NCBI GenBank assembly: GCA_018831055.1
Contig: JAHJRE010000137.1
Coordinates: 1 to 43,321, forward strand
Length of the DNA: 43,321 nucleotides
Direction of reading: 5' to 3'
DNA from: Bacteroidota bacterium
GTDB lineage: Bacteria; Bacteroidota; Bacteroidia; Bacteroidales; B18-G4
Shown: positions 81 through 43,321 of the stretch, piece by piece
Position numbering within the stretch: the first letter of the stretch is position 1
Layout of the letters: each line of letters begins with the position of its first letter
Position numbers and translations under genes: made by a program
Notes under the pieces: model-generated
Seen by the model: the letters and a program-made list of their open reading frames with translations, nothing else
Told to the model about the DNA's origin: nothing
The model's database searches: none

Positions 81-285
81 ATCCCGGCGTAAGCCGGGAT
101 CTGGCATCCGTCACCCCGGTGAAAACCGGGGCATCCCGGTGTAAGCCGGGACATCCCGGTGAACCCGGGGCATCCCGGCGAAAGCCGGGATCTGGCATCC
201 CCGTCATCCCGGTGTAAGCCGGGACATCCCGGTGAAACCCGGGGCATCCCGGCGAAAACCGGGACATCCCGGCGTAAGCCGGGAT
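81..285. repeat. Array of about nine 20-bp palindromic GC-rich units
   Basis: Units of the form atcccgg(c/t)g(t/a)aa(g/a)ccggg(a/g) follow each other at about 20-bp spacing (units begin near 81, 113, 133, 153, 172, 206, 226, 246 and 266). Each is itself a short inverted repeat, CCCGG...CCGGG. A spacer beginning ctggcat recurs at 101, 192 and 286, giving a higher-order period of about 91-94 bp. Open frames across it on both strands are low-complexity products of the repeat and not genes. A diverged single unit with the same architecture lies at 4322-4337. Confidence 0.85.
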
Positions 286-300
286 CTGGCATCCCCGCAC

Positions 301-533
301 ATGCCGGGACGGGACAGCCTAACATAATCCCCCAGCCCCCCTGTGACTTTTTCCCAATTCCCCGTCTAATGTTTGTTAAAAAACGTTTATAAAATATTTT
401 TTGTGCTTTGTACCGGGATTCAATTTTTAGCATATTATTGCACGCTTTTTCAAATACCGGGGCGTAAAATACAAGGTGTTGAAAAGCAGGAAATTATATT
501 AGGTTCTTTACATTAACTTTTTAATCATTTTAA
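301..533. other. AT-rich intergenic region upstream of the kamA operon
   Basis: No gene is recognisable. The stretch turns sharply AT-rich after the GC-rich repeat array and should hold the promoter of the operon starting at 534. I see several T-rich blocks but no clear TTTG-N19-TAnnTTTG match, so I do not place a promoter here. Confidence 0.4.
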
Positions 534-1775: not shown

Positions 1776-1802
1776 GCTTTAACCGTTTAATTTTTACAGA
1801 CC

Positions 1803-2795: not shown

Positions 2796-2803
2796 CCGGT
2801 AAT

Positions 2804-3757
2804 ATGAAAAAGGCAATCATCCTGATCAACGCCCTGGGCCCGGATGCGGGACCTGATGAAATCGATGTTCTCAAACAGGCAGAAGCCATTGAACATGCAC
2901 TGCTGGAACTGGGATATGCAACGGAACGGCTCTTTCTCGACCTTGACCTGAAACATGCCGCCCTAAAGCTCCAGGAAGCATCACCCCACTTTGTCTTTAA
3001 CCTCGTGGAAAGCCTCGATGGCTCCGGCAACCTTATCCACCTTGGTCCCACCCTGCTGGAACATCTGAAGATCCCTTTTACAGGATGCGGCTCCGAAGCC
3101 ATGTACATCACCAGCAATAAGATCCTGGCCAAAACCCTGATGCAACAGAAAGGCATACCTACCCCCCACTGGTTCGAAGATCCTTCGGATGCCATGCCGG
3201 ATAAGCATTATATCGCCAAACCGATGTGGGAGGATGCATCCCTGGGTATAGGCGACGGCAATATCCTGCCGGGTGATCCCGTTGTGATCCGCAACTTCCT
3301 GGAAAATAACAGGAATTACCGTTATTTCTTTGAAGAATACATCGAAGGACGGGAGTTCAATATTTCTCTGCTTGCCGGAACGGTCCTGCCCGTGGCCGAG
3401 ATCGAGTTCCGCGGCTACCCCGCCGGCAAACCCCGTATCGTGGGATATGAGGCAAAATGGCAGGAAGGTTCATTCGAATATGAGAATACGGTTCGCTCTT
3501 TCGGGCTTGATAGCAAGGATACAAAGCTTACCGGGCATTTAAAGGATATTTGTCTTCACTGTTGGTCCCTTTTCGGTTTATCGGGCTATGCAAGGGTTGA
3601 CTTCCGGGTGGATCAGAAGGGCAGGCCCTGGGTGCTGGAAGTCAATGCAAATCCATGCCTGTCGCCGGATGCCGGATTTGTGGCCGCTGCCGACAGAGCG
3701 GGCATTGGTTTTACCAGGGTTGTTGAACGAATTATAAAGGATATATGGAAAGTATAA
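2804..3757 (+). CDS. ATP-grasp ligase, D-Ala-D-Ala ligase-like (2)
   Basis: 317 aa, homologous to the preceding gene but clearly diverged. It shows FNLVESLDGSGNL, PTLLEHLKIPFTGCGSEA, the nucleotide-binding segment NKILAKTLMQQKGIPTPHWF, and the metal-binding end ARVDFR...LEVNANPCLSPDAGF. LEVNANP is a canonical ATP-grasp ending. Two successive ligases in one operon fit two successive amide-forming steps, or a heteromeric enzyme. Its last codons overlap the start of the GNAT gene by 13 nt, so the two are probably translationally coupled. The substrate cannot be told from the sequence. Confidence 0.85.
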   Translation: MKKAIILINALGPDAGPDEIDVLKQAEAIEHALLELGYATERLFLDLDLKHAALKLQEASPHFVFNLVESLDGSGNLIHLGPTLLEHLKIPFTGCGSEAMYITSNKILAKTLMQQKGIPTPHWFEDPSDAMPDKHYIAKPMWEDASLGIGDGNILPGDPVVIRNFLENNRNYRYFFEEYIEGREFNISLLAGTVLPVAEIEFRGYPAGKPRIVGYEAKWQEGSFEYENTVRSFGLDSKDTKLTGHLKDICLHCWSLFGLSGYARVDFRVDQKGRPWVLEVNANPCLSPDAGFVAAADRAGIGFTRVVERIIKDIWKV

Positions 3758-4230
3758 GTTTCAGGAAGGAAGTCAGGAAAAGCGATGTGGAGACCGTACG
3801 GGAAATGGTGACAGGAACGGGTTTCTTCAACCGGGAGGAGATTGATATCGCCGCCGAACTGGTTATGGAAAGGCTTGAAAAAGGCGAGGCCAGCGGTTAT
3901 GAGTTCATCTTCCTGGAGCTCGACGAGACCACCGTAGCTTATTCCTGTTTCGGCAGGATACCCCTCACTAAAAGCAGTTACGACCTCTACTGGATCGTGA
4001 CCAATACCCAATGGCGCAACCGCGGACTGGGCAAGATACTCCTGAAAGAAACCGAAGAGGCCATCCTGAAAGAAAATGGAAGTGCCGTTTACGCAGAAAC
4101 CTCCTCCCGGGAACAGTACCTCCCAACCCGGAAATTTTACGAAAACAACGGCTATCTGCTTAAAGCCCGCTTCGAGGATTATTACGACAGGGGTGATGAC
4201 CTGGTGTTTTATGTAAAGGGGTTGGCTTAG
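3745..4230 (+). CDS. GNAT-family N-acetyltransferase
   Basis: 161 aa, a single GNAT domain. Acetyl-CoA motif A is visible as WRNRGLGKILLKETE (R-x-x-G-x-G pattern), after the beta-4 strand DLYWIVTN. The end SSREQYLPTRKFYENNGYL matches the usual ARxFYExxGF C-terminal part. It overlaps the second ATP-grasp gene by 13 nt. In archaea and some bacteria lysine 2,3-aminomutase (AblA) is paired with an acetyltransferase (AblB) to make N-epsilon-acetyl-beta-lysine, an osmolyte. AblB is larger, so this is at most an analogous step. It may acetylate the product of the two ligases (inference). Confidence 0.85.
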   Translation: MESISFRKEVRKSDVETVREMVTGTGFFNREEIDIAAELVMERLEKGEASGYEFIFLELDETTVAYSCFGRIPLTKSSYDLYWIVTNTQWRNRGLGKILLKETEEAILKENGSAVYAETSSREQYLPTRKFYENNGYLLKARFEDYYDRGDDLVFYVKGLA

Positions 4231-4300
4231 AGCAGGTTAGTAGAAGATAGATTGCAAGGATGATACTTGTTTTTGCAGGTTTAATGCTGGATAGTATTTC

Positions 4301-4394
4301 ACCACAATAGTCACAACCTGTCCCGATGAAAATCGGGAATAGAACACATTAGTTTTATATGATTACTATTGTGTTCTATTGTGCCTATTGTGGT
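4301..4394. repeat. Nested inverted repeat that can fold as a three-way junction
   Basis: The outer arms 4301-4316 (accacaatagtcacaa) and 4379-4394 pair with one mismatch. Inside lie a hairpin 4322-4337 (cccgat, GAAA loop, atcggg) and a second inverted repeat with 4339-4348 pairing perfectly with 4370-4379. It sits between two convergent genes (GNAT ending at 4230 and the T9SS gene ending at 4418), so it could serve as a two-way transcription end or be a palindromic repeat element. No long T tract follows on either strand. Confidence 0.6.
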
Positions 4395-4417
4395 TACATT
4401 CTCTCATTCTTCACCAC

Positions 4418-5917
4418 CTACTTAATCACAAGAAGCCCGGAACTAACCCTCATACCTGCTGCCTCCACAGTAACATGATAAACACCTGATGTAAGAACAA
4501 GACTATTGTCCGTTACCAGGTCCAATCTCCAGGAATGGGTTCCCTCTTCCTGAAAAACCGGGGCCGGCCGGTAAACGATCACTCCCCTGGAATCTGTCAC
4601 AGTCACCCGAACTTCAGATGCCTTATTTAGTGTATATTCCAACCTCACGCTTTCCCTTGCCGGATTGGGGGAAAGGGACAATTGTATTCCTGTTTCGCTG
4701 CTATGTTCATTCAATCCTCCCAGGCAATTCAAATCCCGCGAATGGTATATTTTCCAATGTCCATATTCATAAGCTTCCCAAAGCAGATAATTATACCAGC
4801 AATAAAGTGGAGTACTTTCTCCCAGGAAGAACTCCGGATTCCTGTTGGGGCATCCCAGGTTTGAAAAGTTTTCCAAATAATAATAATCATCAATATATGG
4901 ATTCTCATTGAGGAATATCTCATTATTACCCCCAACAGGATAGGTACATGCCAGGTAGTTTCCTTCCATATACAACGCTGAGGTAATATTTTTGCTGTTT
5001 GGCAAATACTCTCTGATGGCAACATCCGGAGGACCGGTCTGCTGGAAATAATACTCTGTTCCGTGCATTACATCGTCCCTTCCCACTCCGATGGGGCTCC
5101 AGAAGGAATCAACATGTTCCGTAGAAAACGCCAGAAGGTAACTATTATATGCCTTGTCGTCGGTGAGACCCACACAATTACCCCCATTATAAAATATCTC
5201 CGGTTCGCTCCATCCGCTGTCATAATCCCATTCACTCTGATAAATAAATGCACTGCTGTCGGTATTCCGGATCCACAGCACTTTGCTGTTTTCCAATGTC
5301 CAGCATCGAAATACAGGATCGGTACAGTTACCGCTATCAATAACCAGTGGTTCGGTAAAGTTTATCTGACCATCATCATTGTACAAAAAACAATGCATGA
5401 CCTTCCCCCCCTGTATCCATGCAATATCATTGGAATACCAGTAATCATACAAAAAACCGCTTGAAGCAACATTCAGCTGTGTTTCATCCTCCGGTGTTGT
5501 GGCAAATGGAATGGGATCGGAAATGTATCCTCCCGAAGACAGTTTAAGATAATAAATATCCTGGTTCCCCGCTTCATCTGTCTGATACATAATGTATAGC
5601 GTATCAGCAGGGAAATAATCCGTTTCCACCACCACCGGATGGGTATAATGCACCCCGGGTGTGCTCAATAAGGCTGCAGCAGCATTGCCATGAAGCAACT
5701 CCTGGTGCCAGAGGGCAGTGGCAGTAGAATCTGACCACCGTTCCCAGAAAAGGTGCAATTGTTCGACATCATTGTCCTGGAACACGCTCAGATAAGGATT
5801 GGTGTTGTTATCCATAGTATCTCCCAACACTGCCGGATCATCCCACTGACCCCGAACACTGCTGACCAGGAAAACAAAAAGAATCGCAAAAAACACTTTA
5901 AACATTACACTTGCCAT
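4418..5917 (-). CDS. Secreted protein with T9SS C-terminal sorting domain
   Basis: 499 aa. The signal peptide covers about residues 1-23 (FFAILFVFLVSSVRGQ). The body is rich in aromatic residues and Asp/Asn, and looks like a beta-propeller made of short repeats (for example DTLYIMYQTDEAGNQDIYYL, VLWIRNTDSSAFIYQ). I recognise no catalytic motif. The last 80 or so residues are a type A T9SS sorting domain: LSLSPNPARESVRLEY, then GVIVYR, then LTSGVYHVTVEAAG and VSSGLLVIK. The protein is expected to cross the outer membrane by the Por system and be anchored or released. It is flanked by convergent and divergent genes, so it is probably monocistronic. A second Met five codons in is an equally possible start. 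Confidence 0.85.
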   Translation of the reverse strand: MASVMFKVFFAILFVFLVSSVRGQWDDPAVLGDTMDNNTNPYLSVFQDNDVEQLHLFWERWSDSTATALWHQELLHGNAAAALLSTPGVHYTHPVVVETDYFPADTLYIMYQTDEAGNQDIYYLKLSSGGYISDPIPFATTPEDETQLNVASSGFLYDYWYSNDIAWIQGGKVMHCFLYNDDGQINFTEPLVIDSGNCTDPVFRCWTLENSKVLWIRNTDSSAFIYQSEWDYDSGWSEPEIFYNGGNCVGLTDDKAYNSYLLAFSTEHVDSFWSPIGVGRDDVMHGTEYYFQQTGPPDVAIREYLPNSKNITSALYMEGNYLACTYPVGGNNEIFLNENPYIDDYYYLENFSNLGCPNRNPEFFLGESTPLYCWYNYLLWEAYEYGHWKIYHSRDLNCLGGLNEHSSETGIQLSLSPNPARESVRLEYTLNKASEVRVTVTDSRGVIVYRPAPVFQEEGTHSWRLDLVTDNSLVLTSGVYHVTVEAAGMRVSSGLLVIK

Positions 5918-5999
5918 ATAAATCTTAATTTTAAATGATAATTTTTCTAAATATATAACAATTCTCTACGTATTCCAAAAAATATTCCACTTAATACAC

Positions 6000-6063
6000 C
6001 TTCCCACCCTCTCTTCTCCCCTCTCCCTTCTCCCTTCTCCCTGTTCCCCATTTTCTTTTTCCC
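6000..6063 (+). other. Polypyrimidine tract upstream of the AAA gene
   Basis: Almost only C and T on the plus strand, with short repeated blocks of ctcccttctcc type; the only purines are a few isolated bases. It ends directly at the -7 element of the promoter at 6064. Such polypurine-polypyrimidine tracts can adopt triplex (H-DNA) structure; whether this one does is not visible. Confidence 0.5.
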
Positions 6064-6071
6064 TATATTTG
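6064..6071 (+). promoter_or_regulatory. Bacteroidetes -7 promoter element TATATTTG
   Basis: Exact TAnnTTTG match 36 bp upstream of the ATG at 6108. No good TTTG -33 box lies 19-21 bp upstream, where the polypyrimidine tract sits. The in-frame TTG at 6069 lies inside this element, which argues against using it as a translation start. Confidence 0.5.
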
Positions 6072-6107
6072 CACTTCTCACTATTCCTGAAAGACATTTT
6101 TGCCATT

Positions 6108-8753
6108 ATGAACAACTACAAATTCAAATCCCTGCAGGCTTTCAACTGGGATACTCCTGTTAACAAAAAGAAAAAATACCGTCAGGTATTCGACCGCTGG
6201 GAACTGACTTATCTCGGTGTTGAGCTGGCTTTTTTCAACAAAAAGTTTGACGAAAGCGACTGGGAAGCAAAATTTTCTTTTAAAGCCTTTACCCTGCATA
6301 ACGGGGAAAAAGACCAGGAGATCTGCAATATCGAGGATACCTTGAAAATCACCAAAGAGAAGAACGAGGTGATCATCGACAAAGGCTGGGGCGACAGCGA
6401 ACCAGGGAAATTCTGGAAAAAGCGCGATTACTTGTGGGAAGCCTATATCGATGGCAAACCGGTCGGTTCAGCAAAGTTTTACATTGAAGATAATGGGGTA
6501 GTCAGTCAGGATAATAACCCGTATTTTGATGTGGTTTCACTGAAGCTATACGAAGGGCCGGATGAAAACAAACCTGAAAAGGAAAGGGTTTATCTGCGGA
6601 GGTTTAACACCTCCCGGACCCGATATATCTTCGGGGAATTCCGGTTTATAAACCAGCTTCAGAAAGACTGGCTCTGCGAGGTGTTTTTCAATTATTTCGA
6701 CGACACGGGATTGCTTGTGGGCAGGATACCTTCCCTCGACCATATTGTCCGCCAGGAACCCGGCGACGATGTCATCACCATCACCCACGGCTGGGGCCAT
6801 AAAGATCCGGGATCCTGGAAAAAAGACGATTATACCCTGGAAATAGAATACATGGAAACGGTGGTTGCGGTGGTTCCTTTTAATGTAGGCGATAAAAACC
6901 AGGAAGAGCTCAAGGAAGAATCCGCCATTCCGAAAATGTCCGAAAAAGCGGAAGACAAGGTCAATGATTTTGCGGAGTCTCTTCGCGAAGCAAAAGAAAA
7001 GCAAGACAGGCAGCCGGATAAAAAGGCGCTCGAATCGGCTATGAAGGAACTTGATGAACTCATCGGGCTGGAGAAGATCAAAGCGCAAATACGGGAACAT
7101 ATTGCATACATCGATTTCCTGAGAGTAAGGGAAGAAATGGGGTATAAGGAGGAAGAAACCCTCAGTTTGCATAGTGTATTTACAGGAAACCCGGGCACCG
7201 GCAAAACCACCGTTGTACAGATGCTTGGGAAGATCTATCATGCCATGGGACTGCTCTCCAAAGGTCATGTGCATACGGTTGAGAGCTCCGACCTTATTTC
7301 AGGATATGTGCGTCAGACAGGACAGATGACGCAGGAAGAGATAGAAAAGGCCCGTGGGGGGATACTCTTCATCGATGAAGCCTACATGTTGTTTAAAAAA
7401 GGTGCCGACAACGATTTCGGTACTGAGGCCATTGCCGCCCTCATCACTGAAATGAGCGACGGGAAGGGCGATATTGCCATCATGGTGGCAGGCTACCCCG
7501 GTGAAATGAAGGATTTCGTCGAATCCAACCCCGGACTGAAATCCAGGTTCAGGTATTACTTCCATTTCGATGATTACACACCCCAGGAACTCATGAAAAT
7601 AGCCGGATTCATTGCCCGGAAAAAGATGGTTGCACTTTCAGAAGCCGCCTTTGATCTTATGGAAACGGAGGTGACACGGGCATGGCGGTTGCGCGATAAA
7701 TCCTTTGGTAACGCCAGGATGGTAACCGGTATCATCGACGATGCCAAGATCAACCTGGGCGTTCGCATCATGAGGGATATGCAGAATAATCACCTGAATA
7801 AAAAACTCGTCAGCACTATTGAGGAGGAAGACATCCGTGATGTGTTCATTTCCACCGGTAGAGCCCGGGTCGATATCCCCACCGACGAGGAACTGCTTGC
7901 CGAAACCATGAAGGAAATGGATCAGCTTATCGGACTGAATAATATCAAGGAGGAGATCCGCAACATGATCAAGCTCGTCAGGTATTATCGCGATATAAAC
8001 AAGGATGTGCAAAAAGCTTTTCCCGTACACAGCATATTCACAGGAAACCCGGGAACCGGCAAGACAACCGTCGCCAGAATCATGGGGAATATTTACAAGT
8101 CGCTCGGAATTCTCGAAAGAGGACATTTGATTGAAACCGATGCCAGCGACCTCATTGCCGGATACCTCGGACAAACGGCGCTCAAGACACGCGATAAGAT
8201 CAACGAGGCCATGGGCGGGATACTGTTCATTGATGAAGCCTATTCGCTGACCGAAGGACTACATCCTGAGTTTGGTAAGAAAGCAGTCTCCACCCTGATC
8301 AAGCAAATGGAAGACCGGAGAGGTGAGTTCTCGGTCATCGTGGCCGGGTACAGCATGCCTATGGCCGAGTTCCTGGAATCCAATCCCGGGATAAGGTCCC
8401 GTTTCGATCAAACCTTCCTTTTCCAGGATTTCCTGGAAGATGAACTGTTTGAAATTGCTTCTCTCATGTTCCGCAATTCCGGATTACAACTGGAAGATGC
8501 AGCCGGCCAATACCTCAGTGAGTACCTGAAACATCTGTACCAGGGCCGCAACCAGTTTTTCGGCAATGCCCGGTCGGTGAGGAAAATCGTTGAACGAACC
8601 GTCAGGAAACAAAACCTGCGCATGGCATCACTCCCCTCTGCCGGGAGGACCGCATACCATATTCATACGGTCACACTCGATGATATCAAGGATTTCCCCA
8701 TGGAAGAGTCGGTTTCTAGGAAACCTATCGGATTTAAAAGAGAAGGAGAGTAG
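6108..8753 (+). CDS. Double-AAA+ ATPase of the CbxX/SpoVK type with duplicated N-terminal beta domain
   Basis: 881 aa from the ATG at 6108; the frame is open back to a TTG at 6069, but that TTG lies in the promoter. The N-terminal 270 residues hold two copies of a beta-rich domain, each ending in GWG...PG.(F)WKK.DY (GWG at residues 93 and 228, period 135). A charged, coiled-coil-like linker follows (about 285-315). AAA domain 1 has Walker A GNPGTGKT at 360-367 and Walker B ILFIDEA with D423-E424. AAA domain 2 has Walker A at 646-653 and Walker B with D709-E710. Each AAA domain is preceded by LIGL..IK..I, as in CbbX (Rubisco activase) and SpoVK. Both ATP sites look intact. No Rubisco or sporulation genes are near, so the likely role is remodelling of an unknown protein complex in the cytosol. 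It is convergent with the permease gene, 14 bp away. Confidence 0.88.
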   Translation: MNNYKFKSLQAFNWDTPVNKKKKYRQVFDRWELTYLGVELAFFNKKFDESDWEAKFSFKAFTLHNGEKDQEICNIEDTLKITKEKNEVIIDKGWGDSEPGKFWKKRDYLWEAYIDGKPVGSAKFYIEDNGVVSQDNNPYFDVVSLKLYEGPDENKPEKERVYLRRFNTSRTRYIFGEFRFINQLQKDWLCEVFFNYFDDTGLLVGRIPSLDHIVRQEPGDDVITITHGWGHKDPGSWKKDDYTLEIEYMETVVAVVPFNVGDKNQEELKEESAIPKMSEKAEDKVNDFAESLREAKEKQDRQPDKKALESAMKELDELIGLEKIKAQIREHIAYIDFLRVREEMGYKEEETLSLHSVFTGNPGTGKTTVVQMLGKIYHAMGLLSKGHVHTVESSDLISGYVRQTGQMTQEEIEKARGGILFIDEAYMLFKKGADNDFGTEAIAALITEMSDGKGDIAIMVAGYPGEMKDFVESNPGLKSRFRYYFHFDDYTPQELMKIAGFIARKKMVALSEAAFDLMETEVTRAWRLRDKSFGNARMVTGIIDDAKINLGVRIMRDMQNNHLNKKLVSTIEEEDIRDVFISTGRARVDIPTDEELLAETMKEMDQLIGLNNIKEEIRNMIKLVRYYRDINKDVQKAFPVHSIFTGNPGTGKTTVARIMGNIYKSLGILERGHLIETDASDLIAGYLGQTALKTRDKINEAMGGILFIDEAYSLTEGLHPEFGKKAVSTLIKQMEDRRGEFSVIVAGYSMPMAEFLESNPGIRSRFDQTFLFQDFLEDELFEIASLMFRNSGLQLEDAAGQYLSEYLKHLYQGRNQFFGNARSVRKIVERTVRKQNLRMASLPSAGRTAYHIHTVTLDDIKDFPMEESVSRKPIGFKREGE

Positions 8754-8767
8754 GCACTCCCCTATCA

Positions 8768-11119
8768 TCATTCATAGCGTAATGTCTCCGCAGGATTTCT
8801 TGATGCTGTGCGAAGGGCATGCAGGCTGACCGTCACCAGTGAGATCAGAATAGAAAGTACAGCCGCCAGTATGAAGTACCATACGGATATCTCCGTGTGA
8901 TAAACATAGTTCTCCAGCCAGTTTTTCATGGCATACCAGGCAACAGGCCATGCAATGATGTTGGCTATCAGAACCCAGCGCAGAAAATCCCTCGTCATCA
9001 GGTACATAAGCAAAGATGTGTTCGCCCCGAAGACTTTTCGCACGCTGATCTCACGGGTGCGTTGCTCTGCCATATAGGCGGCAAGTCCGAACAAACCCAG
9101 GCAGGAGATCAGAATAGCCAGCAGGGTAAACAAACGAAAAATACTACCCATCTTCTTTTCATTCCGGAAGGTATTGTTATACTCAACATCCAGGAATTTG
9201 ACCTCCACCGGGAAATCCGGATTGAATTTCTTCCATGTTGCTTCCATCTGTTCTATGGCTGCATCACGGTTCTGCATGTTGATCCTGGCATAAAGGTAAT
9301 TCCCATGATCCGGATTCAGTACCATGATCATTGGAGATATTTCATATTCCATGGGAAGATGATGGAAGTCTTTAACGACTCCGATGACCTCGTACCTGTT
9401 ATCTGGTCCCCAGGAAACCCATTTCCCCAAAACCTCCCTGTCGGAGATGATACCGGCAAACTTTTCATTGATCACAATTTTTACCGTATCCGTTGAGAAC
9501 TGTGCATCATAAAAGCGTCCCTCCTTGAGTTCCAGCCCCATGGTTTCCAGATAATTATAGTCTACAAAAGTAAAACCTACCAGAACGTCATCATCAGGAT
9601 TCTTACCCTCCCAGGCTATACCTCCGCTGTTACTTCCCATCCAGAAAGGAAGGGAATTGCCGCGGGTAACACTCAGGATATTAGTATTCTGCAGCAGGTC
9701 TGTTTTCATAGGTTTGTAATTGCTGTTGATCGAACCGTTCATCTCCATAAATACAACATGCTCCCTGTCAAAGCCGGTATCGGTATCCTGCATGTAATTC
9801 ATCTGCCTGAAAATGATCATGGTGCATATGATAAGTATGATGGATAACGAAAACTGAAAAACCACCAGCGCCCTGCGGAAGATCTTGCCACCTTTCCCTC
9901 TCAAAGCTTTACCCTTCAACACCCCTGCCGGTCTGAAACGGGAAAGAAACAACGCAGGATAGCTTCCTGCAAGAAAACCCACGAATACAAGGATAGCAAT
10001 GAGAGCCAGCAAATTAACAGGATCCTGGATAGAAAAATGCAGTTCAGCATCTATAAAAGCATTGAAAGAAGGGAGAACAAAATAAACGATGACCAGGGCT
10101 AAAAGGAATCCAATCACCGTCATCAGCAAGGATTCCCCGAAAAACTGGCCCATGACCTGGGAACGTGTGGCTCCTATCGTCTTCCGGATACCTATCTCCC
10201 GGCTCCTGCGCGACGATCTGGCCGTGGAGAGATTCATGTAGTTGATACAGGCTATGATAAGAATCAGCAAGCCTACCACGGAAAAAATATATACATATTG
10301 AATATCCCCTCCTTTGCCGTCGAAAGAGAATAAATGCACCTTCTCAAAAGGGAACAGAAAAAGGGTTACTGTGCTTTCTTCCAAAGGAACCTCATTTTTA
10401 ATACTGATGAAGTCCTTTATTTTTTCGTTTACTTCCCGGTAATCTGCATTTTCATGCAATTCGGCGTAAACATAATATGTATTCCACCCGTATCGATCAA
10501 TGGTATAACCCATTTTTTCAACATGTTCAAACGGGATACAAAGCCCAAAGCGGAAGGATGAATTGGCCGGATGCTTTTTAACCACTCCGCTTACCTTAAA
10601 CTGGTATTCATTGTTCAGCGAAAGGACTTTCCCCAGTGGATCCTCCTCGCCGAAATATTTCCTGGCCATTTCATCCGACAATACTACGGAGTTAAAATCA
10701 TCAAAATAATGAGAAGGATCGCCCGCAAGATATTCAAAATCTATCATTTCAAATATCTGCGGATCGGATAACAATATCCTTTCTTCAAAAACCTTATCGT
10801 CATATCTTATTATTCCGCCCATCCAATAGTACATGAATGTATTAAGGATTTCGGGTATTTCCTCACGTATATCTTCGGCGATGGGTCCCGGCATGCAGGG
10901 CGTTGTCAGCGGACCGGTGGTATATTGCTGGGTTTGCACCAGTCGGTATAAACGGTCTGATTTGCTGTTAAAACGGTTGTAGCCGATTTCACTGCTAACC
11001 CAAAGAAAAATCAAAATGCTGCAGGCTATCCCGGTCGACAATCCAAGAATATTTATGAAGGAAAAACCCTTCTGGCGAATGAAATTCCGGAGGGCGGTAA
11101 TCATATAATTCTTCCACAT
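8768..11119 (-). CDS. ABC transporter permease of the MacB/FtsX family (orphan)
   Basis: 783 aa. The N-terminal MacB periplasmic core domain follows TM1 (GFSFINILGLSTGIACSILI). The first FtsX unit has three TM segments, from about residue 275 (VYIFSVVGLLILIIACINYM) with the signature NLSTARSSRRSREIGIRK. A second periplasmic domain and a second FtsX unit (FTLLAILISCLGLFGLAAYM, then EISVRKVFGA) follow. This duplicated layout is common in Bacteroidota. These proteins work with a MacB-type ATPase and often a membrane fusion protein; neither is within the window, so its partner must be elsewhere. It is probably monocistronic. Substrate unknown: efflux, lipoprotein handling or mechanotransmission are all possible. 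Confidence 0.9.
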   Translation of the reverse strand: MWKNYMITALRNFIRQKGFSFINILGLSTGIACSILIFLWVSSEIGYNRFNSKSDRLYRLVQTQQYTTGPLTTPCMPGPIAEDIREEIPEILNTFMYYWMGGIIRYDDKVFEERILLSDPQIFEMIDFEYLAGDPSHYFDDFNSVVLSDEMARKYFGEEDPLGKVLSLNNEYQFKVSGVVKKHPANSSFRFGLCIPFEHVEKMGYTIDRYGWNTYYVYAELHENADYREVNEKIKDFISIKNEVPLEESTVTLFLFPFEKVHLFSFDGKGGDIQYVYIFSVVGLLILIIACINYMNLSTARSSRRSREIGIRKTIGATRSQVMGQFFGESLLMTVIGFLLALVIVYFVLPSFNAFIDAELHFSIQDPVNLLALIAILVFVGFLAGSYPALFLSRFRPAGVLKGKALRGKGGKIFRRALVVFQFSLSIILIICTMIIFRQMNYMQDTDTGFDREHVVFMEMNGSINSNYKPMKTDLLQNTNILSVTRGNSLPFWMGSNSGGIAWEGKNPDDDVLVGFTFVDYNYLETMGLELKEGRFYDAQFSTDTVKIVINEKFAGIISDREVLGKWVSWGPDNRYEVIGVVKDFHHLPMEYEISPMIMVLNPDHGNYLYARINMQNRDAAIEQMEATWKKFNPDFPVEVKFLDVEYNNTFRNEKKMGSIFRLFTLLAILISCLGLFGLAAYMAEQRTREISVRKVFGANTSLLMYLMTRDFLRWVLIANIIAWPVAWYAMKNWLENYVYHTEISVWYFILAAVLSILISLVTVSLHALRTASRNPAETLRYE

Positions 11120-11256
11120 GATAACAAAAAATTAGTTTATCAGAATACTGGAGAAAATGAAAAAGATTACAATAATCGGTGTAATTTATAATCATTTCAG
11201 ATAAAGGCCGGGTGCTCTGTCAACCTGAGGGAGGGAAAAATTTTGTCTGGCCAAAA

Positions 11257-35663: not shown

Positions 35664-36221
35664 TTGAAAAAGCTAATTAAAGATATTACAAACATCCAAA
35701 CTGGACTCTTCGCTAAGCCTGCTGGCATTGGTGAATTGGTGTATCTACAGTCCAAGCATTTTGACGAATATGGGCAATTACTTTCTACACTTCAGCCCGA
35801 CTTGATGGCTGAGGGTATTTCTGAAAAGCATCTACTAAAAGATGGTGACGTGCTGTTTGCTGCAAAGGGAACAAAAAACTTTGCAGCCCTTTTTGAAAAC
35901 TTCAACAAACCATCTGTAGCTTCAACTTCTTTTTTCGTATTAAGACCAACCGACAAAAAGATACTTCCTGATTATCTGGCTTGGTTCCTTAACAATCACT
36001 CCACACAGACACTATTAAAAAGTCAAGCTATTGGCACTTCCATTCCTTCTATTTCAAAACAAGTTTTGGAAAATCTGGAAATAGCAGTGCCGGATATCGA
36101 AACACAAAAAGCGATTCTTCAAATCACTAAGCTTCGTAACAAGGAGAAAGCATTGAAGCAGGAAATTGAAACACTTCGTGAAAAACAAATTCAACAACAA
36201 ATAATCAACGCAATAAAATAA
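35664..36221 (+). CDS. hsdS: Half-size type I restriction specificity subunit (HsdS, single TRD)
   Basis: 185 aa, about half of a normal HsdS. It starts with TTG after AAAGGA. Residues 1-140 form one target-recognition domain with the usual landmarks (GDVLFAAKGTKNFAALF, PDYLAWFLNNHSTQTLL, GTSIPSISKQVLENLEIAVP). The tail IETQKAILQITKLRNKEKAL continues into one coiled-coil spacer helix. Half-size HsdS proteins are known to dimerise and give a symmetric recognition site. It precedes hsdM by 5 bp. A full-length HsdS is encoded four genes later, so the operon has two specificity proteins. It could instead be a regulatory or antagonist subunit; it does not look broken. Confidence 0.85.
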   Translation: MKKLIKDITNIQTGLFAKPAGIGELVYLQSKHFDEYGQLLSTLQPDLMAEGISEKHLLKDGDVLFAAKGTKNFAALFENFNKPSVASTSFFVLRPTDKKILPDYLAWFLNNHSTQTLLKSQAIGTSIPSISKQVLENLEIAVPDIETQKAILQITKLRNKEKALKQEIETLREKQIQQQIINAIK

Positions 36222-37791: not shown

Positions 37792-39021
37792 ATGCTTACA
37801 AAAGAACAAAAACAACAATTCAGCGATATTCTGGAAGAGTTAGGCAAGACGCTTGAAATCACAAAAGAACAGTATGATGCAGCAGTTAAAAGCTATAAAT
37901 ATGTTGGTGAATGGCTTTCAAAAGACGATTCTCCACTTGCAACCTATAGTCCAGAGATACTACCACAAGGCTCATTCTTGTTGCAAACAATGATAAGACC
38001 AATACATGAGGAAGACGAACTTGATATCGACCTTGTATGTAAGCTCGAAAAGATACAAGCCAGTTGGACACAGTACGAGTTAAAAAAACTTGTTGGTGAT
38101 AGACTAAAAGCAAATGGTATTCTTAACAAACTCTTGGTGATACCTGACGGTAGAAGGTGTTGGACTTTGCAATATGCTGAATCAGCTAAGTTTCATTTAG
38201 ATGTATTGCCATCAGTTGTAGCAACTGGTTATAGAACAATATTAGAAAAAGCGTTTTCGGCAACTGATTTGACAGATACAAATACATTGGGTATTCGAAT
38301 AACAGATAGAAATACCCCAAATTATAGAACATCGACAAATCTTCGTGAGTGGTTAAAAAGTAACCCATTCGGTTATGCTATTTGGTTTCAAGATCGCTGT
38401 AAAATAGTGACAAGAGAAGTGAGGATGATGAGTGAAGCAATTCAACCTGTTCCTAAATACCAAACTGATAAATTGCCGTTGCAACGTGTAGTTCAAATCC
38501 TGAAGCGTCACCGTGATATGATGTTCAATGGTGATGAGCATAAGCCAATTTCAATCATCATAACAACTTTGGCTTCCAGAGCCTACGCAAAAGAAACTGA
38601 TATAATTGATGCTTTAATAAATGTGGTTACCAAAATGAGAAGTCATATTTCAGACACGAATCCTTTTACAGGAGCAAACGAAAAATGGGTAAGCAACCCT
38701 GTTCATCCCGAGGAAAATTTTGCTGATAAATGGAAGGAATTTCCGGTTAGACAAACCAATTTTTACAAATGGCTTGATGCTGTAGAATTGGACGTGAAGA
38801 ATATTGTTGCACAACAAGGTAAGGGTTTACAGTTCATCAATGAATCAATGGTGAAGCCATTTGGTAAAGATGCTGTTACCAAAGCATTCAGTAGTTATGG
38901 TGAAAAATATTTGAAGCAACGTGAAAGTGGTGCAATGAAAATGGCAGCAGGAACGGGAATGCTGGGTGAAACCGGGAGAACTTCTGTTCCCCAACACAAA
39001 CCTTTTGGTAAAAATGAGTAG
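37792..39021 (+). CDS. CBASS CD-NTase 1 (cGAS/DncV-like nucleotidyltransferase)
   Basis: 409 aa. The polymerase-beta-type nucleotidyltransferase core is visible: QGS at 59-61, the metal-binding pair D78-x-D80 (DELDIDLVCKLEK) and a third acidic residue D137 (KFHLDVLPSVV). It is the typical CD-NTase layout with a C-terminal helical bundle (QVVQILKRHRDMMF-type segment RVVQILKRHRDMMFNGDEHK). It should make a cyclic di- or trinucleotide on phage infection. The last 30 residues are Gly-rich and probably flexible (TGMLGETGRTSVPQHKPF), as in CD-NTases whose C-terminus is conjugated by an E2 partner. The E2-like gene overlaps it by 8 bp. It starts 2 bp after hsdM. The product cannot be predicted safely from sequence. 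Confidence 0.88.
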   Translation: MLTKEQKQQFSDILEELGKTLEITKEQYDAAVKSYKYVGEWLSKDDSPLATYSPEILPQGSFLLQTMIRPIHEEDELDIDLVCKLEKIQASWTQYELKKLVGDRLKANGILNKLLVIPDGRRCWTLQYAESAKFHLDVLPSVVATGYRTILEKAFSATDLTDTNTLGIRITDRNTPNYRTSTNLREWLKSNPFGYAIWFQDRCKIVTREVRMMSEAIQPVPKYQTDKLPLQRVVQILKRHRDMMFNGDEHKPISIIITTLASRAYAKETDIIDALINVVTKMRSHISDTNPFTGANEKWVSNPVHPEENFADKWKEFPVRQTNFYKWLDAVELDVKNIVAQQGKGLQFINESMVKPFGKDAVTKAFSSYGEKYLKQRESGAMKMAAGTGMLGETGRTSVPQHKPFGKNE

Positions 39022-39487
39022 AAAGTCGCTTGTAATACAGGAAGGTACTCTTAAGTCCTATTTCCCCGGAAGCCAAATAAAGCGAAAGGGGGAATCGGAA
39101 CTCACATGGATTGGAGTTGTTACGCCATCTCCGCTGAGTGCTACCTATAAATTAAAGCTACACTACAAATATAATGAGGGAGCTAAGGTATATGTAATTG
39201 ACCCAAAACCATTGAAATTGGCAGTAGGGCAAGTTGTTTTACCACACGTTTACAGTACGCCAGACCAACGGCTATGTCTCTATTATCCTAAAGACAAAGA
39301 ATGGAACACAGGTATGCTCTACGTGCATACATTAATCCCATGGGCATGTGAATGGCTTTGCCATTATGAATTATGGGTGGCTACAGGGACTTGGCATGGT
39401 GGAGGAATATATCACCCAACCGAGGCTGAAAAACAAGCCAACAAACAAAAAGAAACAATTGATGAAGCAAGCAGCAGTAATAAATAA
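39014..39487 (+). CDS. CBASS E2-like protein (stand-alone, type II-short)
   Basis: 157 aa from the ATG at 39014, which overlaps the CD-NTase stop by 8 bp; the frame is open further left (38966) but inside the CD-NTase gene. The layout matches an E2 ubiquitin-conjugating fold: strands YKLKLHYKYNEGAKVYVIDP, then LPHVYSTPDQRLCLYYPKDK with H78 and a candidate catalytic C88, then W97, then a C-terminal helix region LIPWACEWLCHYELWVATG and the family ending WHGGGIYHP. This corresponds to the HPN...C...W pattern of E2s. Known type II-short CBASS systems carry an E2 without an E1 or JAB protease, and it primes the partner CD-NTase. No ThiF-like E1 and no JAB gene is present within the window. It links CD-NTase 1 to a conjugation step. 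Confidence 0.78.
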   Translation: MSRKSLVIQEGTLKSYFPGSQIKRKGESELTWIGVVTPSPLSATYKLKLHYKYNEGAKVYVIDPKPLKLAVGQVVLPHVYSTPDQRLCLYYPKDKEWNTGMLYVHTLIPWACEWLCHYELWVATGTWHGGGIYHPTEAEKQANKQKETIDEASSSNK

Positions 39488-40667
39488 TTTAATGGAGGAA
39501 AGGAAGCCTTTTTACAATTCTACGATACCAACAGATTGGAGTGTAAGTACAGTTGGCGAAGCATTTGAAATTTGTAACTATTTACGTTTTCCAATAAGCG
39601 AAGAAGAACGGAAGAAAATCCAAGGCCTTTTCCCCTATTATGGTCCAACAAAAATTCAAGACTATATTAACGAATATAGAATAGAAGGGAAATATGCTTT
39701 AATCGGAGAGGATGGCGACCATTTTTTAAAATGGAAGGAATTGCCAATGACACTTTTGGTAGAAGGCAAATTCAATGTTAACAATCATGCACATGTAATA
39801 AAAGGCACGGACAACCTTACTGAGTGGTTTTTCTATTATTTTAACCACAAAGAACTAACTCCATATTTGACAAGGCAAGGAGCTGGAAGATACAAACTAA
39901 CCAAGCAATCACTAGAAAAAATCCCGATTGCATTGCCAAATATTGCGGAACAAAAAGCTATAACAACGATTATAAGAACCTGTGATGCTAATGTTGAAGT
40001 AGTTGAGAAACTTATTATCCAAAAAGAACTCCGCAAAAAATGGCTCATGCAGCAATTACTTTCGGGGAAAAGAAGACTGAATAGCTTTAATGGTGAAGTA
40101 AAAACAAAAGTTGTAGGACAGTTTATAAAAGAAGTTTCTGAAAGAAATAAGGACTTGAAAGTTACCAGAGTTCTCTCTGTTACAAATTCCAGAGGATTTA
40201 TAAACCAATCTGATCAATTTGATAGGTCGGTTGCTAGCGAAGATGCTTCAAACTATAAAATCGTAAAGAAAGGTCAGTTTGCATATAATCCTTCGAGGGT
40301 TAATGTTGGCTCACTTGATTTACTGAGAAATTTTGATGAAGGCATTTTGAGTCCAATGTATGTTGTGTTTTCAACAGACGAAAAACATCTACTTGCTGAC
40401 TTTCTATACTTTCATCTAAAAACACAATGGTTCTATGGTCATATTCCAATGTTCGTTCAGGGAAGCGTTAGAGATAGTTTATCATTTGATGGACTTTGCT
40501 CAATGAAGTTTTTTATTCCAACGATAGAAGAGCAAACTGCCATTGTTAGAGTTCTTCAAGCAGCAGATAAAGAAATATCGCTTTTGAAATTGAAAGCAGA
40601 AAAATTGCGAGAAAAGAAAAAAGGCTTGATGCAGCAATTATTAACCGGAAAAATCAGAATCAAATAA
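39462..40667 (+). CDS. hsdS: Full-length type I restriction specificity subunit (HsdS, two TRDs)
   Basis: 401 aa from the ATG at 39462, which overlaps the E2 gene by 26 bp; an ATG at 39492, 4 bp after the E2 stop, is equally possible. Two TRDs are present. The first runs from IPTDWSVSTVGEAFEI to LEKIPIALPNIAEQKAI and leads into the central helix RKKWLMQQLLSGKRRL. The second runs from KVTRVLSVTNSRGF to SMKFFIPTIEEQTAIVRVLQ and leads into EKKKGLMQQLLTGKIRIK. Two different TRDs give an asymmetric bipartite target. It is separated from hsdM by the CD-NTase and E2 genes, which is unusual. It shares little with the half-size HsdS beyond the general layout. The patatin gene starts 1 bp after its stop. 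Confidence 0.92.
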   Translation: MKQAAVINNLMEERKPFYNSTIPTDWSVSTVGEAFEICNYLRFPISEEERKKIQGLFPYYGPTKIQDYINEYRIEGKYALIGEDGDHFLKWKELPMTLLVEGKFNVNNHAHVIKGTDNLTEWFFYYFNHKELTPYLTRQGAGRYKLTKQSLEKIPIALPNIAEQKAITTIIRTCDANVEVVEKLIIQKELRKKWLMQQLLSGKRRLNSFNGEVKTKVVGQFIKEVSERNKDLKVTRVLSVTNSRGFINQSDQFDRSVASEDASNYKIVKKGQFAYNPSRVNVGSLDLLRNFDEGILSPMYVVFSTDEKHLLADFLYFHLKTQWFYGHIPMFVQGSVRDSLSFDGLCSMKFFIPTIEEQTAIVRVLQAADKEISLLKLKAEKLREKKKGLMQQLLTGKIRIK

Positions 40668-40668
40668 T

Positions 40669-41781
40669 ATGGCAGATACATTCAAAATATTATCCATTGA
40701 CGGAGGCGGCATCAGAGGCGTTTTCCCAGCCATGCTATTAGCCAACTATGAAGCAGAACTTAAAGCGAAAGGCGTTGAGAAATGGCAGGTGTATCAAAAC
40801 TTTGATTTAATCTGTGGTACTTCTACCGGGGGTATTATGGCAATTGCTCTTTCTTTAGGAATACCTGCTAAAGAGATTTATGAGATGTATTTGAATAATG
40901 CTGGTTTGATTTTCGGTGATAAAAAAAGTTTTATCAGACAGATATGGAGGTCGGCTCATAAACGTGATGAATTAGAGAAATTAGTTCGGGAAACATTTGC
41001 AAAACACAACAATGCTAAGGATCCTAGATTGGTTGATTGCAAGACACCTGTAATGATTCCTATTTATGATATGATGGAAGGTCGTCCATCAGTTTTAAAA
41101 AGCAAGTACCATCCAGCTTTTGTTCGTGATTTTCATATTCCGGCATATCAGGCGGCCATGGCAACATCTGCCGCACCAACCTACTTCGACCCTTATTCAT
41201 CAAGCTACACCGACTTAAACGACATTGAAAAACCCTTTGCCAATAAAATAGATGGCGGAGTTTGGGCAAATAACCCCACCCTAAACGGAATCATTGAAGC
41301 ACAAAAAGCCTTCGGGGTTAAACTTGAAGAACTTTCTGTTTTATCAATTGGAACAGGTCATCAGAAATTCTGTGATGCCGGCATTAAATATAATAAAGGA
41401 ATTATCAACTGGATTCTCCGACAGCTGAGAATCAAAAAGAAATCAGAAATGCGGAAAAAGTTTGGTATAAAATATTGGATTTACTCGGATGATAAAAAAA
41501 GACTGATTGATGTGTTTATGCAAGGGCAATCTCAACAAGTTCAAAACTTAATCAGCCTTTTGCACAAAGGAATTGATAAAGGTGAACAAGAAAATTTCAA
41601 GTATTTGCGAATTGACACAGAATTAAATGAAAGCTGCAACATTGAAATGGACGAAACGGATACCGAAAGACTTAAAAAACTTGCTGAAAAAGCAACCATA
41701 GAATTTCAAAACAATGCTACCAATATTATTAAGAATTTTGGGAGTGGCAGTCGGAGGACTGATTCTCAAAGAACTGTTTAG
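40669..41781 (+). CDS. capV: CapV-like patatin phospholipase, CBASS effector
   Basis: 370 aa. The patatin fold is complete: the oxyanion loop DGGGIRG (11-17), nucleophile S52 in GTSTGG (50-55), and the catalytic Asp D195 in DGGVWANNP (195-203). CapV is activated by cyclic dinucleotides and degrades membrane phospholipids, killing the infected cell. In known CBASS operons it is next to a DncV-like cyclase, as it is here (CD-NTase 2, 25 bp downstream). It starts 1 bp after the hsdS stop (TAATATG), so translation is likely coupled. The last residues (KNFGSGSRRTDSQRTV) are unlike a folded end, while another frame of the same DNA gives a hydrophobic stretch running into the next gene; a frameshift near 41735 cannot be excluded. 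Confidence 0.9.
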   Translation: MADTFKILSIDGGGIRGVFPAMLLANYEAELKAKGVEKWQVYQNFDLICGTSTGGIMAIALSLGIPAKEIYEMYLNNAGLIFGDKKSFIRQIWRSAHKRDELEKLVRETFAKHNNAKDPRLVDCKTPVMIPIYDMMEGRPSVLKSKYHPAFVRDFHIPAYQAAMATSAAPTYFDPYSSSYTDLNDIEKPFANKIDGGVWANNPTLNGIIEAQKAFGVKLEELSVLSIGTGHQKFCDAGIKYNKGIINWILRQLRIKKKSEMRKKFGIKYWIYSDDKKRLIDVFMQGQSQQVQNLISLLHKGIDKGEQENFKYLRIDTELNESCNIEMDETDTERLKKLAEKATIEFQNNATNIIKNFGSGSRRTDSQRTV

Positions 41782-41806
41782 CGATGACGAAATAAAATAC
41801 AACGAC

Positions 41807-42673
41807 ATGGCCAATACACATAACCAATTTTTAAAGTTCGAGCAAGCAATCTCACTTACAAAAGGGAAAAAGGATAAACTTACTTCATCCCGACAAGCTT
41901 TGCAAAAAAGCATTGTAGAATATTTCAAAACCAAAACGAAAGTTCCGGTACCTAAATTTTACATACAAGGTTCATACAAAATGAAAACAATGGTCGTGAA
42001 AAAGGACGGTAGTTACGATGTTGATTTAGGTGTTTATTTTCTTACCAAACCAACTATTGAGCCATTGACTTTACAAAAGTATGTAGCAGAAGCGGTGAAA
42101 GACCAAACCGTTTCTGGTATTGAGCATAAAGAAAAGTGTATCAGGGTAATTTACAAAGGCGATTTTGATATTGACTTGCCAGTCTATTACAAAATCCCAA
42201 ATAATAAACATCCATTTCTTGCCACAAAAACCAAATGGCAAGAAAGCGACCCAAAAGAATTATGCGATTGGTTTGAAAAGCAACGTAAGGAGAAAGATAG
42301 AGATGGTCAAATGCTTCGCTTGGTAAAATACTTCAAAACTTGGGCTTACCAAAGAAGCAGAAAAATGCCGAGTGGTATTGCTTTCAGTTTTTGGGTAGCC
42401 ACATTTTACAAACCGAACACTAGAGACGATATTGCTTTTTATGAAACTGCCAAAGCCGTAAAGAATTCATTTGGGTGGGAAACTGCAAGTAAGAACCCTG
42501 CAACTCCAAGAGATGATTTTCTGGCAAAACTGGACGGCAATCAGAAAAGCAACTTCAAAGAGGCATTTAATGAACTGATAAAACAAGCGGAACAAGCTTT
42601 ACAGCAAGACAGTCTAACCAAAGCACTAAACATTTGGAAACAGCAGTTTGGGGATAAGTTTCCGGTAATTTAA
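41807..42673 (+). CDS. CBASS CD-NTase 2 (DncV-like cyclase)
   Basis: 288 aa from the ATG at 41807. The frame is open back to an ATG at 41714 inside the patatin gene, adding 31 mostly hydrophobic residues. I prefer the inner ATG because MANTHNQFLKFEQAISL is the usual beginning of this group. Numbered from there, GS is at 55-56, the metal pair is D71-x-D73 (YDVDLGVYF) and the third Asp is D123 in FDIDLPVYY. The later stretch KWQESDPKELCDWFEKQ and MLRLVKYFKTWAYQ...MPSGIAFSFWVA matches Vibrio DncV (KWINSDPKIVEDWF, RFMKAW). The likely product is a cyclic dinucleotide that activates the patatin. It lacks a flexible C-terminal tail (ends FGDKFPVI), unlike CD-NTase 1, so it is less likely to be an E2 substrate. 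Confidence 0.88.
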   Translation: MANTHNQFLKFEQAISLTKGKKDKLTSSRQALQKSIVEYFKTKTKVPVPKFYIQGSYKMKTMVVKKDGSYDVDLGVYFLTKPTIEPLTLQKYVAEAVKDQTVSGIEHKEKCIRVIYKGDFDIDLPVYYKIPNNKHPFLATKTKWQESDPKELCDWFEKQRKEKDRDGQMLRLVKYFKTWAYQRSRKMPSGIAFSFWVATFYKPNTRDDIAFYETAKAVKNSFGWETASKNPATPRDDFLAKLDGNQKSNFKEAFNELIKQAEQALQQDSLTKALNIWKQQFGDKFPVI

Positions 42674-42684
42674 AAAAGAAAGAT

Positions 42685-43321
42685 ATGGCATATAAAATAC
42701 CACAACTTCCTTTGGATTTCGGTTTAGAAACCAAAGCCATTCTAAAAAAAACGGCTGCTGCCCGCAGTGCATTGGCTGAGATGAAAGGGGCTGCCCTGAG
42801 CATTCCGAATGAAAGTATTTTAATCAGTACCCTTTCTCTACAAGAAGCAAAAGACAGTTCGGCCATAGAAAACATCATTACCACACATGATGAATTGTAT
42901 CAGGGCGATTACCTGAAAAAGGAGTTTAAATCCATCGCATCCAAAGAAGTACACAACTATGCAGAGGCATTGCGTTGGGGTTTTGCAACTGTTAGGCAAA
43001 AGGGAATACTGACAAACAACCACATCATTCAGATGCAGGCAACACTGGAAGAAAATGATGCAGGCTTTAGAAAAGTACCCGGCACAGAATTGAAGAATGA
43101 GCAAACGGGTGAAATAGTGTACACGCCACCACAAACCCATGATGAAGTAGTAGCTTTAATGAGCAATCTGGAACAGTTCATCAACGACAACGCACTCAGT
43201 GATTGGGATCCGCTGGTGAAAATGGCTATTATCCATCATCAGTTTGAAAGCATTCACCCTTTTTATGATGGCAATGGAAGAACAGGTAGGATTATCAATA
43301 TTCTGTATCTGGTAAAAGAAG
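42685..43321 (+). CDS. fic: Fic-family protein with N-terminal inhibitory motif (cut by window edge)
   Basis: 212 codons are visible and the frame runs off the right edge. The Fic motif HPFYDGNGRTGR is complete at residues 191-202. The inhibitory helix motif (S/T)xxxE(G/N) is present as S58-S-A-I-E62-N63, which marks class II Fic proteins whose AMP transfer is blocked by their own N-terminal helix. Family members transfer AMP from ATP to hydroxyl groups of target proteins. It starts 11 bp after CD-NTase 2 with a purine-rich AAAGAAAGA site, so it is part of the same operon. Fic genes of this type are often found inside type I restriction-modification operons, usually before hsdR. The target is unknown. 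Confidence 0.93.
   Translation, partial: MAYKIPQLPLDFGLETKAILKKTAAARSALAEMKGAALSIPNESILISTLSLQEAKDSSAIENIITTHDELYQGDYLKKEFKSIASKEVHNYAEALRWGFATVRQKGILTNNHIIQMQATLEENDAGFRKVPGTELKNEQTGEIVYTPPQTHDEVVALMSNLEQFINDNALSDWDPLVKMAIIHHQFESIHPFYDGNGRTGRIINILYLVKE

What the first reader, a model, noticed from the sequence alone, without database searches (positions are those of the whole stretch)
39014..39487. Stand-alone E2-like protein paired with CD-NTase 1, no E1 or JAB
H78, C88 and W97 follow the E2 pattern and the ending WHGGGIYH is a recognisable family mark. The gene overlaps CD-NTase 1, whose flexible C-terminus would suit conjugation, whereas CD-NTase 2 ends in a compact sequence. This supports a type II-short module (CD-NTase 1 + E2) beside a type I-like module (CapV + CD-NTase 2). 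What supplies the activated intermediate without an E1 in the window is open.
Basis: partly seen in the sequence, partly recalled or inferred. Interest (0 to 1): 0.65.

Follow-up and report, generated by a model that had tools for sequence, protein, structure and literature searches.

The report
E1-free E2 of a short CBASS
This gene makes a ubiquitin-conjugating-type (E2) enzyme that very probably clips and attaches the tail of its neighbouring immune-signal synthase without any E1 helper; that is a known kind of bacterial anti-phage system, found here in an unusual conserved setting, inside a restriction-modification operon and beside a second synthase.

Summary
ORF 39014-39487 is a real stand-alone E2: PADLOC E2 E=8e-49, AF2 model best matched by the Serratia CdnG-E2 complex (VIA Z 15.1), purifying selection (dN/dS about 0.09), C88 and H78 in 78/78 full relatives. 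It overlaps CD-NTase 1 (CDN1), a relative of the cyclase in the same complex. 'Type II-short CBASS module' is supported. The question 'where is the E1?' is largely settled: the 96%-complete genome has no ThiF/E1 and no JAB hit, and the literature describes conjugation by a single E2.

CDN1 has a disordered tail ending HKPFG-KNE. Cyclases beside such E2s share [HN]xx[FY]G followed by 1-7 residues, so the tail must be cut to expose a conjugatable end; relatives without this E2 lack the motif. In 12 loci tail and E2 were inherited as one unit while the cyclase body was swapped.

New relative to the finding: hsdM-CDN1-E2-hsdS is conserved in 11 other Bacteroidota loci, followed by Cap5, CapV-CDN2, or both; this genome continues with fic and hsdR. 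So this is a type II-short CBASS interleaved in a complete type I RM operon. Its effector (CapV, shared with CDN2, or none) is unresolved.

The parts
35664..36221 (+). hsdS0: 185-aa half-size HsdS-like protein, first gene of the operon
   Evidence: Methylase_S PF01420 1.4e-11; conserved first gene in L025-L030 and L032-L035, 44-86% identity
36227..37789 (+). hsdM, type I methyltransferase
   Evidence: N6_Mtase 2.6e-98; TIGR00497 above cut-off
37792..39021 (+). CD-NTase 1 (CDN1), CdnG-like cyclase and E2 substrate; catalytic G60 S61 D78 D80 D137
   Evidence: PADLOC cyclase 1.1e-133; PDB 9woo_A 3.6e-60, 8hsb_A 1.4e-38; catalytic residues invariant in A4
38926..39018 (+). CDN1 disordered tail (residues about 379-409) ending H402-K-P-F405-G406-K-N-E
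   Evidence: pLDDT falling from 74 to 39 along the tail; G406 26/26, F/Y/H at 405 26/26
38818..38860 (+). recombination junction: upstream CDN1 body L031-like (93%), downstream tail + E2 L025-like (92-94%)
39014..39487 (+). stand-alone E2 (like the E2 domain of Cap2), catalytic C88, H78
39492..40667 (+). hsdS, type I specificity subunit (ATG 39492 likely)
   Evidence: Methylase_S 1.2e-23; start read from sequence
40669..41781 (+). CapV patatin-like phospholipase effector
   Evidence: NF041079 CBASS_lipase 6.6e-76, above cut-off
41714..42673 (+). CD-NTase 2 (CDN2), tailless DncV/cGAMP-synthase-like; likely start ATG 41807
   Evidence: NF041078 3.6e-53, above cut-off; ends FGDKFPVI, no tail
42685..43321 (+). 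fic, N-terminal part; the remainder starts contig C98, followed there by hsdR (C98 662-3889)

Best explanation
The gene is the E2 of a type II-short CBASS. Shown by sequence and model: an E2 fold with invariant C88/H78, an adjacent cyclase with a disordered tail ending in aromatic-Gly plus extra residues, co-inheritance of tail and E2, no E1 found in the genome. Inferred: the tail enters the E2 active site, C88 attacks the peptide bond at the F405-G406 or G406-K407 position (exact bond not known), the last residues leave, and a cyclase~S-C88 thioester forms without ATP or E1. The E2 then passes the cyclase to a lysine, most likely on another CDN1 (poly-cGASylation as in Serratia), raising cGAMP-type signal output. 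The signal most likely activates the effector of the operon, CapV, which degrades the membrane. CDN2 lacks the tail and is probably not a donor in this reaction. The hsd genes form an ordinary type I RM system that shares the operon.
For: Both partners match the two chains of the CdnG-E2 complex 8hsb. SmCdnG ends VPKNTFYGE, the same motif class as the window's HKPFG-KNE. G406 is invariant in 26 cyclases down to 25% identity, within an otherwise variable tail; 48 of 53 distinct E2-adjacent tails fit [HNSK]xx[FYHE]G plus 1-7 residues, and the others still carry an internal Gly. In E1-containing type II systems the LAST residue is Gly/Ala (PMC10097602). Relatives without this E2 lack the motif: AGS_C-domain cyclases (L121-L123), Cap2-associated (L119, L120), other-E2-clade-associated (L118, L124, L125). 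No ThiF in the genome although 12 of 14 control genomes ring; no JAB. E2 identity tracks tail identity r=0.89 versus -0.13 with the body. PMC11153139 cites cyclase-cyclase conjugation for type II-short with only an E2; PMC12135389 lists E2-dependent cGASylation at Y405.
Against: No biochemistry here. The full Yan et al. 2024 paper is not held, so the E1-independent cleavage step rests on its abstract as remembered and on citations. The window tail has Pro-Phe instead of Phe-Phe/Tyr before Gly and three residues after it, so cleavage by this E2 is extrapolated. Tail and E2 are adjacent, so co-inheritance could be linkage around a conserved recombination site. The genome is 96% complete; an E1 could be missing. 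CapV as CDN1's effector is unproven.
Confidence: 0.83

Rival explanations
1. The CDN1-E2 pair is an orphan that lost its effector: its proper partner was Cap5 (HNH-SAVED), and CapV-CDN2 is an independent type I CBASS that landed behind hsdS. The E2 still modifies CDN1 but the signal has no reader.
For: L025 and L027 (and by size and position L034, L035) have Cap5 behind hsdS and no CapV; L033 has Cap5 and then CapV-CDN2; no SAVED or Cap5 match in this genome (neither search had a positive control genome).
Against: L036 and L086 have CDN1-like-E2-CapV with no second cyclase detected nearby, CapV 58-63% identical to the window's; the E2 is under purifying selection; six other loci keep CDN1-E2 together with CapV-CDN2.
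Confidence: 0.2
2. The E2 conjugates CDN1 onto a partner other than CDN1, for example CDN2, CapV or a host protein such as PspA, holding CDN1 inactive or linking the two cyclases.
For: Full type II Cap2 links a Bacillus cyclase to PspA (PMC11153139); two cyclases, one tailed and one not, recur in L005, L028-L032 and L082.
Against: No sequence feature identifies the acceptor; E2-linked operons without a second cyclase are the majority.
Confidence: 0.15
3. The E2 works with an E1 supplied in trans.
For: E2s in general receive their cargo from an E1; full type II CBASS has an E1-E2 fusion.
Against: No PF00899 match in the whole genome, with 12 of 14 controls positive; the tail continues beyond Gly, unlike E1 substrates of type II CBASS, which end in Gly/Ala.
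Confidence: 0.04
4. E2-like scaffold (UEV-like) without catalysis that merely binds CDN1.
For: The nearest eukaryotic folds include Tsg101 UEV domains, which lack the catalytic Cys.
Against: C88 and H78 are invariant across 78 relatives down to about 30% identity; in a scaffold they would be expected to drift.
Confidence: 0.04

Closest known systems
Serratia marcescens type II-short CBASS (SmCdnG + E2; PDB 8hsb, 8yjy, 9kkb; Yan et al. 2024 Nat Microbiol)
   Same: Same E2 fold (VIA Z 15.1, 30% identity), same cyclase family (E=1.4e-38), same [HN]xx[FY]G-x C-terminus, no E1/JAB
   Different: About 30% identity; tail is HKPFG-KNE; second tailless cyclase and CapV present; genes interleaved with hsdM/hsdS/fic/hsdR
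Full type II CBASS (Cap2 E1-E2 fusion + Cap3 JAB, e.g. Vibrio DncV, Bacillus cereus)
   Same: Conjugation of the cyclase C-terminus through an E2 cysteine
   Different: No E1 domain, no Cap3; tail continues past the Gly instead of ending in Gly/Ala
Second clade of stand-alone CBASS E2s (PADLOC PDLC00859/871/872, 210-274 aa; L118, L124, L125)
   Same: Stand-alone E2 directly behind a CD-NTase
   Different: Longer protein and different cyclase tails (KPWQRC, KPWRCR, KPYGY)
DarTG2 embedded in a type I RM system of E. coli (PMC12255303)
   Same: A defence module inserted among hsd genes of one operon
   Different: Different module; inserted between hsdS and hsdR, not on both sides of hsdS

Membership tests
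Type II-short CBASS (CD-NTase + stand-alone E2) | CD-NTase with intact catalytic residues | tested here: met
   G60 S61 D78 D80 D137 invariant in 26 homologues; PADLOC cyclase 1.1e-133
Type II-short CBASS (CD-NTase + stand-alone E2) | Adjacent E2 domain with catalytic Cys, no E1 domain | tested here: met
Type II-short CBASS (CD-NTase + stand-alone E2) | No E1/JAB in operon or genome | tested here: met
   PF00899 and PF14464 give no match in the 96% complete genome
Type II-short CBASS (CD-NTase + stand-alone E2) | Cyclase tail with the motif seen in the E2-processed SmCdnG | tested here: met
   HKPFG-KNE versus NTFYGE of SmCdnG
Type II-short CBASS (CD-NTase + stand-alone E2) | Effector gene in the operon | tested here: inconclusive
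   CapV lies downstream of hsdS, but CDN2 could be its cyclase
Type II-short CBASS (CD-NTase + stand-alone E2) | E2 cleaves and conjugates the cyclase; conjugation boosts signal | not testable with these tools
   Needs biochemistry
Full type II CBASS (Cap2/Cap3) | E1 domain and JAB peptidase | tested here: not met
   the E2 ORF is only 157 aa
Full type II CBASS (Cap2/Cap3) | Cyclase ends in Gly/Ala | tested here: not met
   Ends G-K-N-E; rule from PMC10097602
Type I CBASS (CapV + CDN2) | Cyclase + effector, no ancillary genes | tested here: inconclusive
   CapV and CDN2 are adjacent and CDN2 is tailless, but the loci were selected by E2; independent occurrence of this CapV-CDN2 pair was not found in the phylum sample
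Type I restriction-modification operon | hsdM, hsdS and hsdR in one run | tested here: met
   hsdM and hsdS in the window; fic remainder and hsdR on contig C98; contig order inferred from the split fic gene

The most novel reading that the evidence does not exclude
The conserved interleaving is functional: the E2 attaches CDN1 to a component of the co-expressed RM machinery or to the tailless CDN2, so that restriction of phage DNA, or a mixed two-cyclase assembly, controls CBASS signalling.
Probability: 0.08. Interest if true: 0.8.

Novelty: new variant of a known kind. Interest (0 to 1): 0.45.

Why it matters
It extends E1-free, E2-driven cyclase conjugation (worked out in one Serratia system) to a Bacteroidota group and gives a sharp testable signature: an aromatic-Gly pair followed by 1-7 residues at the cyclase C-terminus, present with this E2 clade and absent without it. 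Natural recombinants that swap the cyclase body but keep tail plus E2 point to the tail as the E2's recognition unit. The conserved layout, with two cyclases and one or two effectors woven into a type I restriction operon, makes cooperation between restriction and CBASS a direct experimental question.

Tried and rejected
E1 in trans: rejected on the genome search. Non-catalytic UEV-like scaffold: disfavoured by invariant C88/H78. L029's 178-aa ORF between hsdS and CapV as a Cap5 remnant: rejected, no similarity beyond a 16-residue chance match. Pfam scan of 34 E2 homologues gave nothing. Promoter/terminator scan gave no more than shuffles, so operon limits rest on spacing and gene overlaps. 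An all-family E2 alignment (A1) was too diverse for the genome scan; a narrower one (A2) worked. The main paper on single-E2 CBASS is not held. The Fisher test printed used a hand-entered table of related sequences and is not relied on.

Full report
Observation. The ORF 39014-39487 (+) encodes 157 aa and overlaps the stop of CD-NTase 1 by 8 bp (ATGAGTAG). General libraries miss it (Pfam, NCBIfam: none), but PADLOC finds it with twelve models (eleven E2, one cyclase-E2 fusion; best 8.1e-49), and its only PDB sequence match is chain B of 8hsb, the E2 of the Serratia CdnG-E2 complex (1.2e-16). An AF2 model (pLDDT 82.7) matches 8yjy_B/8hsb_B best (Foldseek 5e-8, TM 0.7; VIA Z 15.1 over 136 residues, rmsd 3.6), then eukaryotic UEV/UBC folds at Z 7-8. 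Among relatives C88 is present in 78/78 full sequences, H78 in 78/78, W97 in 76/79. dN/dS to the nearest relatives is about 0.09 or lower. The WHGGGIYH 'ending' is at residues 127-134, not the end.

Partner. CD-NTase 1 matches 9woo_A (3.6e-60) and 8hsb_A, SmCdnG (1.4e-38). So both genes are related to the two chains of one solved complex. Catalytic residues are intact. AF2 gives an ordered body, a last helix 359-378 and a disordered tail 379-409 (pLDDT falling to 39). CD-NTase 2 ends at FGDKFPVI without a tail.

Tail motif. Across 26 cyclases adjacent to such E2s (the other 25 are 25-92% identical to CDN1), G406 is invariant, residue 405 is F/Y/H, and 402 is H/N/S, in a tail that otherwise varies. 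Of 53 distinct tails, 48 fit [HNSK]xx[FYHE]G followed by 1-7 residues; four diverged ones keep an internal Gly, and the fifth (L027) is a frameshift whose other frame reads HKPFGKHE. SmCdnG ends NTFYGE. In E1-containing type II systems the C-terminal residue itself is Gly or Ala (PMC10097602). So short-type cyclases need removal of residues before conjugation through that Gly or its neighbour. Comparison set: relatives of CDN1 or CDN2 without this E2 clade do not carry the motif. They have an AGS_C domain and no E2 (L121, L122; L123 by similar length and C-terminal sequence), an E1-E2 Cap2 (L119, L120), or the other, longer E2 clade with different tails (L118, L124, L125). These sequences are related, so this is a pattern rather than a formal test; L118's tail ending KPYGY partly resembles the motif.

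No E1. The genome (342 contigs, 96% complete) gives no PF00899 match, although 12 of 14 control genomes do, and no Prok-JAB match. [quoted passage not shown] 2024. My recollection of that paper's abstract (not held) is that the single E2 processes the cyclase C-terminus, forms a thioester, ligates to lysine and builds poly-cGAS chains that activate cGAMP synthesis. Y405 in SmCdnG precedes G406-E407, the position of F405-G406 here. Which bond is cut is not settled by my data.

Tail and E2 are inherited together. In 12 loci, DNA identity of the E2 correlates r=0.89 with identity of the CDN1 tail (38901-39012) and -0.13 with the CDN1 body (37881-38840); none of 5000 label permutations reached the partial correlation. 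The window is itself a mosaic: body 93% to L031 but tail+E2 59-64%; tail+E2 92-94% to L025 but body 65%; the junction lies at about 38818-38860, residues 343-356, just before the last helix. L025/L033 and L031/L032 show the same junction. Caveat: the junction lies in a conserved stretch and tail and E2 are adjacent, so linkage alone could produce this.

Neighbourhood. The order hsdM-CDN1-E2-hsdS is present in the window and in 11 other Bacteroidota loci (L025-L035, ten genomes; a half-size hsdS0 precedes wherever the contig allows). After hsdS comes HNH-SAVED Cap5 (L025 and L027 by Pfam/PADLOC; L034 and L035 by size and position), CapV-CDN2 (L028-L032, window) or both (L033); L026 ends after hsdS. 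HSDR_N follows in L025, L035 and L032. In this genome the rest of the window's fic gene and hsdR begin contig C98 (Fic residues 5-220 at the window end, 219-365 at C98 start; hsdR at 662-3889, 92% identical to L035 over its N-terminal 474 residues). That C98 follows the window is inferred from the split gene. Related but different layouts: L083 (hsdM-Cap5-CDN1-E2-fic-hsdS), L084 (CapV-tailed CDN2-E2 behind hsdS), L121 (hsdM-Cap5-AGS_C cyclase-hsdS-fic, no E2). Embedding of other defence genes in type I RM is known (DarTG2, PMC12255303); I found no held paper describing CBASS interleaved this way, which is weak evidence because many papers are not held.

Effector. Two readings remain. (a) CapV reads the CDN1 signal: L036 and L086 have CDN1-E2-CapV without CDN2, with CapV 58-63% identical to the window's. 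(b) CDN1-E2 lost Cap5 and CapV belongs to CDN2: L033 keeps both modules. I favour (a) modestly.

Verdict. A genuine, conserved E2 with an intact catalytic site, part of a type II-short CBASS: a known kind, in a conserved variant setting. Mechanism steps past homology are inferred.

Noticed in passing
window 35664-36221: A 185-aa half-size HsdS-like gene starts the operon in the window and in the relatives whose contigs reach it; it could be a half specificity subunit or a regulator of HsdS.
   Followed up: partly
window 41714-41810: The CDN2 ORF as listed overlaps CapV by 68 bp and would add a hydrophobic N-terminus of 31 aa; the domain match begins at residue 32, near ATG 41807. The same overlap is listed in L029-L033.
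   Followed up: no
L050 10824-12188: A single ORF starts as a DncV-like cyclase (Pfam) and ends in an E2-like sequence, downstream of a separate CD-NTase-E2 pair: a natural cyclase-E2 fusion.
   Followed up: partly
L031 5649-6527: A third DncV-like cyclase follows CDN2 in the same operon.
   Followed up: partly
L005 1821-5275: Fibrella plasmid operon CapV - tailed cyclase (HSFYG-E) - unannotated E2 - tailless cyclase: an independent two-cyclase layout with exactly one tailed cyclase.
   Followed up: partly
L121 (G116:C13) 162-11139, - strand: Type I RM operon with Cap5 and a cyclase whose AGS_C domain replaces tail and E2, in a slot equivalent to that of CDN1-E2.
   Followed up: partly
L030 9788-11313; also L029, L032, L033 downstream of CDN2: A 253-aa ORF follows CDN2 in L029, L030, L032 and L033; in L030 it is a GGDEF protein followed by a metallophosphoesterase. 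Possibly further nucleotide-signalling parts.
   Followed up: no
L118, L124, L125: A second clade of stand-alone CBASS E2s (210-274 aa) sits behind cyclases ending KPYGY, KPWQRC, KPWRCR, suggesting another tail code.
   Followed up: partly
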